Shown: positions 12,831 to 63,506 of the stretch, one piece after another
Numbering within the stretch: the stretch's first letter is position 1
Layout of the letters: the number at the start of each line of letters is the position of its first letter
Assembly (NCBI GenBank): GCA_017464305.1
Contig: JAFUDS010000001.1
Coordinates: 263,747 to 327,746, forward strand
Reading direction: 5' to 3'
DNA from: Clostridia bacterium
GTDB taxonomy: Bacteria; Bacillota; Clostridia; Christensenellales; Aristaeellaceae
DNA: 64,000 bases
Made by a program: the position numbers and the translations under genes
Notes under the pieces: model-generated
Database searches by the model: none
Told to the model about the DNA's origin: nothing
Seen by the model: the letters and a program-made list of their open reading frames with translations, nothing else

Positions 12831-12973
12831 GCGAAGGGATGTTTCACTCCGGGGCCCTTGGAAGACGTCGGCACTTAGCGGGTGGCAAGCGCGCACGCGC
12901 GAAGGCAGCCGCTTTGTGCCGCTACGTCTGGAACGGAGCGAGAGCGTGCCCCGGAGGGGAACTCCCGCGCGCG
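12831..12973 (+). repeat. Dispersed structured repeat, copy A
   Basis: About 143 bp and almost identical to copies at 41363-41502 and (inverted) 63365-63506. It folds into an outer stem TCCGGGGC/GCCCCGGA (12848-12855/12948-12955), a middle stem GACGTCGGCAC with GTGCCGCTACGTC (12864-12874/12916-12928), an apical GCGCG/CGCGC stem, and a short GC-GAGA-GC hairpin on the 3' side. It lies between the SRP RNA terminator and the glyA promoter. Reading frames crossing it look spurious. Confidence 0.88.
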
Positions 12974-12984
12974 CTATACATCAT

Positions 12985-13117
12985 AAAAAACCGCCAATGC
13001 TCAGACCGGGCAACCCCGCAGCACACCCAGCTAACGCTTACTGCTGCTTCCGTCAGGACCTGACAGGGTTCACGTCGATGGATCGCACGGGACCCAATCG
13101 TCATCGCATTCGCGGCA
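12985..13117 (-). ncRNA. ffs: Signal recognition particle RNA (small bacterial type, 4.5S-like)
   Basis: The minus strand carries the invariant SRP RNA domain IV: GTCAGGTCCTGACGGAAGCA at about 13030-13051, flanked by the Ffh-binding internal loops, with GTGCTGCGGGG on the 3' side. The outer ends pair (CCGCGAATGC at 13106-13115 with GCATTGGCGG at 12991-13000, one mismatch) and a run of T follows at 12985-12990. The RNA is about 115-130 nt and lacks room for an Alu domain, so it is the small form. A promoter lies immediately upstream. Its product forms the SRP with Ffh for membrane-protein targeting. Confidence 0.93.
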
Positions 13118-15724: not shown

Positions 15725-15902
15725 CTCCCTCGCAAGCAAGGCAAAGCAAGTATAAGCACCCCCGCGGAGCGGGGTGTCCTTAACAAAATTGCTCATAAAG
15801 ACTCCCTCGCAAGCAAGGCAAAACTAACGGCACCCCCGCGGAGCGGGGGTGCCCTCAAAGATTGTCCATAAAAGACTCCCTCGCATAAAGCGGGGGAGCT
15901 TT
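15725..15902. repeat. Tandem 74-77 bp GC-hairpin repeat
   Basis: Two and a half units start at 15725, 15802 and 15876 with CTCCCTCGC. The first two each contain CACCCCCGCGGAGCGGGGTG-like palindromes (near 15757 and 15831); the last ends in CGGGGGAGC and a run of T (terminator on the plus strand). It lies between convergent genes and may terminate transcription from both sides. Confidence 0.75.
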
Positions 15903-27549: not shown

Positions 27550-30500
27550 ATGAGGGGAAAAGAATCCAAACAGGTGAATACAGCGGGGATTATTATTATC
27601 GGCGCGCTGGTGATTACGCTGGTTCTGGCACTGAGTACGATCTGGATGGGCCGAAGCGCTGGCCGGGATACGGAGTCGGCCGTGCGGTCCGTGTCGCTGC
27701 TCTATCTTGACGAGCTGGCCGGGCGAAGAGAGCAGGTCGTGGCGGAGAATCTGAAGGATCGGATCAAGGACATGGAGACAGCGCTGGATCTGATGACGGA
27801 GGAAGATCTGCAGGACGAAGCGCATCGGCAATCCTATCAGATCAAGATGAAGGCCCTGTTCAGCCTGGAAAAGTTCGCCTTCGTGGATGAAGCGGGGCTG
27901 ATCTATACCTCTGTGGGCGTACAGGATGATATTGATACCTATCATTTCGACCCCCAGCAGCTGACCCAGGCGGAGATTTCCCTGAAGAATGTGGAAAGCG
28001 TGGATAAGAAGGTCATCATTGCCATGCCGGTGGATCTGACCTCCGAAGGCCGGCATCTGATCGCCAGCTTCATGGAAATCGATATGAAGGAAATGCTCTC
28101 CGGAGTTTCCATGCAGTCCCAGGAGGAGGGCGCTACCTTCTGCAATATCTACACGGAGGATGGTATCGCCCTGAGCAACACCGTGCTAGGCGGACTGGCC
28201 GGAGAGGATAATCTGCTGGAGGCCATGAAGCAGGCCACCTTTGAGCCGGGATATTCCTATGATGGCTTTCTGGCCGGGTTCCAGGGGGAGCAGCGGGGCG
28301 TGGTCTCCTTTACCTACGACGATGTCCGCGCCACCTTGGCCTATGTCCCGGTGGAAGGGACGGATTGGCTGCTGACCTATCTCATCCGGGAAAGCGTCAT
28401 CAGTGAACAGATTGGCTCCATTTCCGATGGCATCATCCGGCGCAGCGTCGCGCAGTCCGTGCTTATCGTTGTTATTTTGATGGTGCTCTTCACTTATTTG
28501 ATCATGCAGATCAGAAGAAACGCACAGTTGCAGATGGAGCGGGAGACCGCGGACGCAGAGAACCGGGTGAAGCAGCAGGGGCTGGAGCATCGGCTCCGCC
28601 TGCAGGAGGAGCTCCTGGCCCAGAAGAAGCAGCAGGAAGAGCAAACCCGGATGATCACCGCCCTGGCTTCGGATTACTGGAGCGTTTATTACCTGGATCT
28701 GGATCGGGACGAGGGCGTTTGCTATCAGGCCCATGACGACGTGCAAAACGGCCTCCATGTGGGGGATCGCTTCCGGTATGTAGAATCGTTTACCGCCTAC
28801 GCCAAGGAAAATATCCGGGAGGAATATCAGGAGGATTTCCTGCAGTTCATTCATCCCCAGAATGTGAAGAACCGGCTGCGGGAACAGCGGGTAATCTCTC
28901 ATCGGTATATGGTGCATCGGAATGATCGGGATACCTGGGAGGAGGTCCGCTTCGCAGGGGTCCGACATCCGGAGGATCGAGCGGATCACCTGGTGCACGC
29001 GGTGGGCGCGTGCTTTGTGGATGTGGATCTGGAAACCCGAAAGGCCATGGCTCAGAATCAGGCGCTGCAGGATGCGCTGAGCGCGGCGGAATCAGCCAAC
29101 AAGGCGAAAACCGCCTTCCTGTCCAACATGAGCCATGAGATTCGTACGCCCATGAATGCCATCATCGGCCTGGATAATATCGCCCTGAATGATCCGGATA
29201 TTTCCGAAACCACCCGGGAGCATCTGGAGAAGATCGGCACCTCAGCCCATCATCTGCTGGGCATCATTAACGATATCCTGGATATGAGCCGCATTGAGTC
29301 CGGCCGCATGGTAATCAAGAGCGAGGAGTTCTCCTTCGCCAAGGCCCTGGCCCAGGTAAATACAATCATTAACGGCCAGTGCCGGGATAAGGGACTGACC
29401 TACGATTGCCAGGTGCTGGGGAAGGTGGACGATTACTACATCGGGGACGACATGAAGCTGCGCCAGGTGATGATTAACATCCTGGGGAACGCGGTCAAGT
29501 TCACCCCGGAGGGCCGGTTGGTCTCCTTTACGGTGGAGGAAACGGCCCGATATGAAGGGAAAGCCACCTTGCGGCTGGTGATGAAGGACACAGGCATCGG
29601 CATGAGCGAGGAATTCCTGCCGAAAATGTTCGACGCCTTTGCCCAGGAGGATTCCTCCAGCACGAACCGCTTTGGCAGCACAGGGCTGGGAATGCCCATC
29701 ACCAAGAGCATTGTGGAGCTGATGAACGGAACCATTGACGTGCAGTCCAAGAAGGGAGAAGGAACCACCTTCACGGTCACCGTAACGCTGCTGGAATCCG
29801 ACCGAAAAACCGGAACGGAGGAGAGCGGCGGGCTTCCGACGGACGATATGTGCGTGCTGGTGATCGATGATGATCCCATCGCCTGTGATCATGCCCAGGT
29901 GGTGCTGGGCCAGGTGGGCATCCGCTGCGAGAAGGCCCTGTCCGGCGCGGAGGGGCTGGAGATGGCGAAGCTGAGACACGCCCGGAGAGAACCCTATCAT
30001 CTGATTCTGGTGGACTGGCGGATGCCGGAGATGGACGGCGTGGAAACAACGAGGCAGATTCGCGCCGCGGTAGGCGAGGAAATCCCGGTGATCATCCTGA
30101 CCTCCTACAGCTGGGAGGACATCGCGGAGGAAGCTCTGGCCGCCGGCGTAGATACCTTCGTCGCCAAACCGCTGTTTGTGGGCTCCGTGCTGGATGAATT
30201 CCGGGAAGCCTTCCGGAAGAAGAATGCTCAGCTGGTGCAGCGGGTTGTAGATCTGAAGGGGAGACGAATTCTCCTGGCGGAGGATGTGCAGATCAACGCG
30301 GAGATCATGATGATGGTACTGTCCATGCGGGAGATGGAAGTGGAGCACGCGGAGAACGGCCGAATCGCGGTGGAGATGTTTACAGCCAGCGCGCCGGGAT
30401 ACTATGACGCGATTCTGATGGATATGCGGATGCCGGAGATGGATGGCCTGGAGGCCACGAAGACGATTCGCGCACTGGGGCGGAAGGACGCGGAGGAGAT

Positions 30501-41362: not shown

Positions 41363-41502
41363 GCGAAGGGATGTTTCACTCCGGGACCCTTGGAAGACGT
41401 CGGCACTTAGCGGGTGGCGAGGGTTTACCCGAAGGCAGCCGCTTTGTGCCGCTACGTCTGGAACGGAGCGAGAGCGTGTCCCGGAGGGGAACTCCCGCCC
41501 GC
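41363..41502 (+). repeat. Dispersed structured repeat, copy B
   Basis: Same element as copies A and C. The outer stem here is TCCGGGAC/GTCCCGGA, so one base pair has changed on both sides relative to copy A (GC to AT). The apical hairpin is GGGT-TT-ACCC in place of GCGCG-CA-CGCGC. It fills the gap between rseP and ispG inside the operon, antisense to these genes. Confidence 0.88.
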
Positions 41503-61446: not shown

Positions 61447-61671
61447 GGGATCGGTCGTAATCTTCGGGTCTGTGGTTGCAAGCCGATGCCAGTCGCAGGC
61501 GAAGCGGTCCACGTAATCCGCCCCAAGTGGCGGGGAGCATGGTGCGGTCTAGATGTAAGTCCATCCGGGTGCAAGCCCGAGAGAAGTGCGTGAGGGCGCG
61601 ACGGCGCGGAGCAACCTTCCAGATGGCGTGTGTGGGGGCAAAGACCAGGTCAGCCGAAGGTTCACCTATCA
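61447..61671 (+). ncRNA. Candidate structured RNA (unassigned) or long structured leader
   Basis: A 240-bp GC-rich, non-coding stretch follows the promoter. Its ends pair: AATCTTCGG (61459-61467) with CCGAAGGTT (61654-61662), one G-U pair, continued by GTCT (61468-61471) with AGAC (61642-61645). Inside are short hairpins such as CCGCC-GGCGG (about 61518-61535) and GGGTGCAAGCCC (about 61567-61578). The transcript would run into the zinc-ribbon gene 33 bp further on. I do not recognise the class; it does not show the signatures of RNase P RNA, tmRNA, 6S RNA, or a cobalamin, T-box or glycine riboswitch. The raiA motif is one known class worth comparing. Confidence 0.55.
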
Positions 61672-63364: not shown

Positions 63365-63506
63365 GCGTGCGGGAGTTCCCCTCCGGGGCACGGCTCGCGC
63401 CTCCGTTCCAGACGTAGCGGCACAAAGCGGCTGCCTTCGCGCTAGCGCTCGCCACCCGCTAAGTGCCGACGTCTTCCAAGGGCCCCTGAGTGAAACATCC
63501 CTTCGC
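63365..63506 (-). repeat. Dispersed structured repeat, copy C
   Basis: Third copy, in the opposite orientation to A and B, between the TSCPD and helicase genes. Reading on the minus strand the apical hairpin is GCGC-TA-GCGC and the 3' hairpin is GGC-GCGA-GCC, again different sequences with preserved pairing. The outer stem has one mismatch (TCAGGGGC against GCCCCGGA). Confidence 0.88.

What the first reader, a model, noticed from the sequence alone, without database searches (positions are those of the whole stretch)
12831..12973. Three-copy dispersed element with compensatory base changes in its stems
Copies at 12831-12973, 41363-41502 and (inverted) 63365-63506 share most of about 140 bp. 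Where they differ, the changes preserve pairing: outer stem TCCGGGGC/GCCCCGGA becomes TCCGGGAC/GTCCCGGA in copy B; the apical hairpin is GCGCG/CGCGC, GGGT/ACCC or GCGC/GCGC; a small 3' hairpin is GC-GAGA-GC in A and B but GGC-GCGA-GCC in C, both with GNRA-type loops. Copy C has one mismatch in the outer stem. Covariation points to selection on the RNA or single-strand fold, while the occurrence in both orientations relative to genes points to a mobile or REP/MITE-like element rather than a cis-riboswitch.
Basis: seen in the sequence. Interest (0 to 1): 0.8.

Follow-up and report, generated by a model that had tools for sequence, protein, structure and literature searches.

The report
Fold-conserved mobile repeat of gut Bacillota
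The three look-alike stretches belong to an apparently undescribed family of short, gene-less jumping elements of gut bacteria whose folded shape is kept by evolution even where the letters change.

Summary
The own genome has 32 model matches, and 30 of 45 genomes of the genus have some. A pattern scan (stopped at its limit) adds 109 loci, mostly ruminant-gut Bacillota incl. Mogibacterium and Selenomonadaceae, all 109 confirmed by the model; one genome holds 78 copies. Covariation is strong: 40 of 45 pairs change on both sides, 905 double-change cells against 259 in shuffles. No relevant Rfam match.

It is mobile: copy A and four others are cleanly absent from their sites in relative G061. In sister species it has 14-bp inverted repeats and 8-bp target duplications (8 of 21 stretches against 3 of 420 control pairings); the same repeat borders an IS66-family transposase gene. 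A RAYT link is not supported.

RNA or DNA is open: a GNRA loop is kept in 159 of 173 rows, but G-U and A-C changes are much more balanced than in raiA RNA of the genus. Best reading: a non-autonomous MITE/BIME-like element, IS66-mobilised in this genus, its fold kept on both strands.

The parts
12831..12973 (+). Copy A of the element (conserved part; the inserted unit extends up to about 16 nt further on each side)
   Evidence: site empty in G061
12831..12855 (+). 5' arm of the outer stem of copy A
   Evidence: fold
12863..12929 (+). Long arm of copy A: stems AGACGT/ACGTCT and CGGCAC/GTGCCG with a CT bulge on the 3' side, conserved apical hairpin
   Evidence: fold; covariation
12938..12945 (+). 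GC-GAGA-GC hairpin (GNRA loop) of copy A
12948..12972 (+). 3' arm of the outer stem of copy A
   Evidence: fold
41363..41502 (+). Copy B of the element
   Evidence: also occupied in G061
41468..41475 (+). GC-GAGA-GC hairpin of copy B
63365..63506 (-). Copy C of the element
   Evidence: also occupied in G061

Best explanation
A, B and C are copies of a non-autonomous mobile element, a MITE/BIME-like interspersed repeat. Shown: it is dispersed, it occupies sites that are empty in a close relative, and its fold (outer stem, three-way junction, long arm with a conserved apical hairpin, small GNRA hairpin) is kept through compensatory changes. Shown in sister species, inferred for this genome: it moves as a unit of about 190 bp with 14-bp inverted repeats (GTAACTGTTCAGTC) and 8-bp target duplications, mobilised in trans by an IS66-family transposase. 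Inferred: the core is older than these ends and has been carried by different vehicles, phages among them. Inferred: since pairing is kept with little preference for one strand, selection acts on the hairpin as DNA or on transcripts of either orientation, most simply by letting an insertion between genes fold away as a tolerated, insulating stem whichever way it is read.
For: Covariation: 28 of 45 pairs and 40 of 45, no shuffle as high. Clean empty sites in G061 for A, L022, L023, L025 and L028. TIR plus target duplication: 8 of 21 TIR-bounded stretches with 7 or 8 of 8 identical flanking bases against 3 of 420 mismatched pairings; a phage-contig copy between exact 9-bp repeats ATATGCCCG. The same TIR lies about 120 bp from the match to IS66 transposase PF03050 (E 5.9e-41) in G032. 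Both orientations and varied neighbours. Near-balance of G-U and A-C changes, e.g. 42:29 in A3 against 16:1 in raiA.
Against: 12 of the 21 TIR-bounded stretches have at most 4 of 8 matching flanking bases. The exact TIR core occurs only twice in the own genome and once in G061, and copy A, a clean insertion, has no recognisable TIR. No IS66 search of the own genome was made. The kept GNRA loop, the better fold of the + strand and structure-chosen counts of G-U against A-C (31:9, 92:34, 38:24) point to RNA.
Confidence: 0.55

Rival explanations
1. The element encodes a functional structured RNA of the + strand, for example a protein-binding or trans-acting RNA, and was dispersed by transposition. 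The RNA fold is what selection sees.
For: GNRA loop in 159 of 173 rows with one GNYA; + strand folds better than the other by 12 kcal/mol in A, B and C; structure-chosen G-U:A-C 31:9, 92:34, 38:24 and 63:22 in re-aligned A4.
Against: Unbiased counts are 2:7, 2:12, 42:29, 43:25 and 6:6 against raiA 16:1. Copies lie in both orientations. No expression data; no Rfam family.
Confidence: 0.25
2. The paired changes are made by DNA itself: template switching between the arms of a quasi-palindrome corrects one arm from the other, so stems stay perfect without selection on function.
For: Outer stems are long, fast-changing and nearly perfect; G-U and A-C are nearly balanced; core-deleted remnants occur. 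The process itself is recalled from the literature, not from a call.
Against: The core keeps the same unpaired bases, bulge and GNRA loop over large distances, which correction between arms would erase.
Confidence: 0.15
3. It is a portable bidirectional terminator or insulator, kept for its effect on neighbouring transcription.
For: In Selenomonads 42 of 61 copies have an upstream perfect stem of 7 bp or more (2.5 expected in shuffles) and 24 of 61 an A-rich stretch before it, which reads as a terminator on the opposite strand.
Against: That hairpin was not seen as a fixed part of the window's copies; at least five sites are simply empty in a close relative.
Confidence: 0.15
4. It is a REP/REPIN-like element moved by a RAYT (Y1 HUH) transposase through a folded single strand.
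For: Closely spaced inverted pairs of copies, for example G332:C8 9226-/9418+ and G333:C70 15507-/15701+; hairpin form; tandem 87-bp units in one family.
Against: Y1 is absent from 4 of 10 and 6 of 7 element-bearing genomes, the seven being 92-100% complete; nine Y1 loci show no adjacent copy.
Confidence: 0.05

Closest known systems
MITEs mobilised by IS66-family insertion sequences
   Same: No gene, 14-bp inverted repeats shared with an IS66-family element, 8-bp target duplications in sister species. That IS66 elements make 8-bp duplications is recalled.
   Different: A conserved structured core that also occurs in bacteria where these ends were not seen; most copies of the own genome lack the exact TIR.
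REP sequences, BIMEs and REPINs
   Same: Many short intergenic hairpins per genome, both orientations, close inverted pairs, tandem units in one family.
   Different: Larger and branched; no consistent Y1 transposase.
bcr1-like and other structured MITEs of Bacillota (recalled)
   Same: About 150 bp, inverted repeats, stable fold, dispersed.
   Different: No sequence link was tested; spread over two classes here.
IStrons (group I intron plus IS; PMC4227781, seen in a search listing)
   Same: A DNA transposon coupled to a structured sequence.
   Different: No Rfam match in the copies scanned, so no recognised intron; no gene inside.

Membership tests
IS66-type MITE | Inverted repeats shared with an IS66-family element | tested here: met
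   Met in sister genomes: exact AACTGTTYAGTC in G027 (28), G032 (6), G030 (1), G067 (1); in the own genome only 2 places. Transposase beside it in G032.
IS66-type MITE | 8-bp target-site duplication | tested here: met
   8 of 21 stretches with at least 7 of 8 identical bases against 3 of 420 control pairings; not shown for A, B or C.
IS66-type MITE | Moved by IS66 transposase | not testable with these tools
   Needs a transposition assay; PF03050 was not searched for in the own genome.
REP/REPIN with RAYT | Y1 transposase in the genome, bordered by copies | tested here: not met
   Present in 7 of 17 carriers examined; nine Y1 loci without an adjacent copy, one weak hit about 1 kb away. MAG gaps possible.
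Known RNA family or riboswitch (Rfam 15) | Match to a covariance model | tested here: not met
   Whole window at gathering scores, copy A and ten diverse loci by E-value: no relevant match.
Cis-regulatory RNA | Fixed place and sense orientation to one kind of gene | tested here: inconclusive
   Neighbours of 19 loci differ, judged by eye from ORFs; orientation counts are mixed but rest on crude ORF calls.
Structured RNA | Excess of G-U over A-C variants | tested here: inconclusive
   Unbiased: 2:7, 2:12, 42:29, 43:25, 6:6, 63:22; raiA control 16:1. Structure-chosen: 31:9, 92:34, 38:24.
Integron attC site | Array of cassettes beside an integron integrase | not tested
   No integrase search was made. 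Copies are dispersed over many contigs, which does not suggest one array.

The most novel reading that the evidence does not exclude
A mobile fold: a hairpin core kept in at least two classes of Bacillota (Clostridia and Negativicutes) that has no transposase of its own and moves by changing its ends and vehicles: IS66-type inverted repeats in one genus, a hairpin plus CCTTAATG linker in Selenomonads, a bare 43-nt hairpin in tandem units elsewhere, and phages. What is inherited is the shape, readable on both strands, more than the sequence.
Probability: 0.3. Interest if true: 0.8.

Novelty: new variant of a known kind. Interest (0 to 1): 0.62.

Why it matters
Gene-less repeats are usually short-lived offshoots of one transposon. 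A core kept across two bacterial classes, in up to 78 matches per genome and with dozens of double-sided base-pair changes, suggests a function for the element or its hosts. It offers a large natural data set for telling selection on RNA from selection on a DNA hairpin, and a family that RNA and repeat annotation of rumen bacteria appear to miss.

Tried and rejected
RAYT/Y1 transposase. Rfam families. A shared neighbour gene: 19 loci from 18 genomes, compared by eye, show different genes. Collections of plasmids and phages by blastn: no match (for a Selenomonad copy in plasmids; for that copy and copy A in phages). Gene-orientation counts rest on crude ORF calls that gave copy B a wrong neighbour strand by my reading; I use them only to say mixed. 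Two first attempts to count tetraloops were faulty and were replaced. The R/N link in the CRA..GNAG internal loop is significant in A3 (p 0.0009) but not in A4 (p 0.23). Extra pairing of the 4 nt outside 17 copies of the own genome is slight (1.8 against 1.4 of 4). An aragorn tRNA control failed to parse, and the SRP control had no eligible pairs in the unbiased test.

Papers: six searches. One paper seen in passages (PMC8040213), which names REP sequences as a palindromic class; supplements were not open to me. The others were seen as listings only.

Full report
What was checked. The three copies are at the stated coordinates and differ as described. Predicted fold: an outer stem, a three-way junction, a long arm with an apical hairpin, and a small hairpin with a GNRA loop.

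How many and where. blastn gives 46 matches in the own genome, a 2.53-Mb assembly of 69% completeness; several lie at contig ends. Model R1, built from 23 sequences, gives 32 matches there and matches in 30 of 45 genomes of the genus. In 300 genomes drawn from the family 26 match, all in this genus out of 50 genera; these searches use strict filters and score few candidates per genome. All 109 hold an R1 match at E up to 0.01, as do two viral contigs. Most records are ruminant-gut MAGs; labels include Mogibacterium, Selenomonadaceae and Schwartzia, that is Clostridia and Negativicutes. One record labelled Succinivibrionaceae (L170) carries the own genus's type of copy and may be misbinned. Twelve genomes reached through these loci hold 1 to 78 matches. 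Of 398 genomes of the phylum 8 match model R2, in 6 of 267 genera. The distribution is wide but patchy.

Covariation. In A2 (23 sequences) 28 of 45 pairs change on both sides, in 122 cells against 38.7 in shuffles. In A3 (91 sequences, fitted to the model) it is 40 of 45 and 905 against 258.8; 87% of cells pair, against 29-45% with slid partners. In Selenomonads neighbouring pairs swap independently: TTAGC/GCTTA, TTGAC/GTCTA, TTGGC/GCCTA, TTAAC/GTTTA.

RNA or DNA. For RNA: the small hairpin keeps a GNRA loop in 23 of 23, 79 of 88 and 57 of 62 rows of A2, A3 and A4 (a few copies may occur in two alignments), with one GNYA; the + strand folds better; and on structure-chosen pairs G-U exceeds A-C, 31:9, 92:34 and 38:24. 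Against: with pairs chosen without favour to either, G-U:A-C is 2:7 (set1), 2:12 (A2), 42:29 (A3), 43:25 (A4 as aligned), 6:6 (A3 re-aligned) and 63:22 (A4 re-aligned; 37:21 without the doubtful pair 21-116), while raiA RNA from 30 genomes of the genus gives 16:1. The difference from raiA is significant for set1, A2, A3 and the trimmed A4 (p 0.0004, 8e-6, 0.009, 0.016) but not for the untrimmed A4 (p 0.11), and the raiA sample is small. A stricter choice of pairs gave 2:2, 9:6, 43:25, 39:21 and 39:24. SRP RNA of eight genomes gives 81:0, counting fixed pairs of an RNA-predicted structure. The fold is thus kept with little strand preference, which fits a DNA hairpin or selection on transcripts of both orientations.

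Mobility. Flanks of 19 copies were sought in G061. A and four others (L022, L023, L025, L028) are cleanly empty; B, C, L014 and L019 are occupied; L003, L009 and L017 keep only stem ends; L016 has other sequence; six were not found. The inserts reach up to about 16 nt beyond the conserved part. In sister genomes, full elements of 186-190 bp have 14-bp inverted repeats. Of 21 TIR-bounded stretches (short forms included, one overlapping another) 8 have flanking octamers with 7 or 8 identical bases, against 3 of 420 mismatched pairings. The same repeat borders an IS66 transposase gene in G032. Forms of 41-84 bp without the core occur in G027 and G030. In a tailed-phage contig (L245; terminase, HNH, primase and SSB genes) one copy lies between exact ATATGCCCG repeats.

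Variants. In the own genome some copies have a longer apical stem (L023, L025, L026, L028) and some a second module of about 105 nt at the place of the GNRA hairpin. In Selenomonads a perfect stem precedes 42 of 61 copies and the linker CCTTAATG or a near form 39 of 61. In one further family of the phylum the 43-nt apical hairpin stands alone, also in 87-bp tandem units.

Verdict. Not shown: IS66 genes in the own genome, transposition, transcription, and the mobiliser in the other groups.

Novelty. No Rfam 15 family fits and six searches of open full texts found no description; subscription papers and supplements were not covered.

Noticed in passing
61459-61662 (+): raiA RNA (RF03072, 174.7 bits); the family is in 38 of 45 genomes of the genus and served as the RNA control.
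   Followed up: partly
13001-13099 (-): Small SRP RNA gene (RF00169) directly beside copy A; its flank is conserved in relatives.
   Followed up: partly
L031-L036, L040; also L016's site in G061 (L333): A second structured module of about 105 nt replaces or extends the GNRA hairpin in several copies and seems to stand alone at one G061 site, so it may be a mobile family of its own.
   Followed up: no
L015, L026, L027, L030; also L124, L163, L181: Another palindromic repeat, CGCCCGGAAAACAGTCCAGTGGACTGTTTTC or near forms, is inserted in copies of the element.
   Followed up: no
15756-15885: Two diverged 56-nt copies of a GC-rich hairpin-bearing repeat, 74 bases apart.
   Followed up: no
29994-30473: Two 72-nt stretches, 78% alike and 408 bases apart, that look like repeated response-regulator receiver coding sequence (the reading is mine).
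   Followed up: no
L246-L285: Hairpins upstream of Selenomonad copies come in several sequence types, each with paired stem changes, and often follow an A-rich stretch, like terminators read on the other strand.
   Followed up: partly
L170: A contig labelled Succinivibrionaceae carries a copy of the own genus's type, scoring 156.6 bits; likely misbinning or recent transfer.
   Followed up: no
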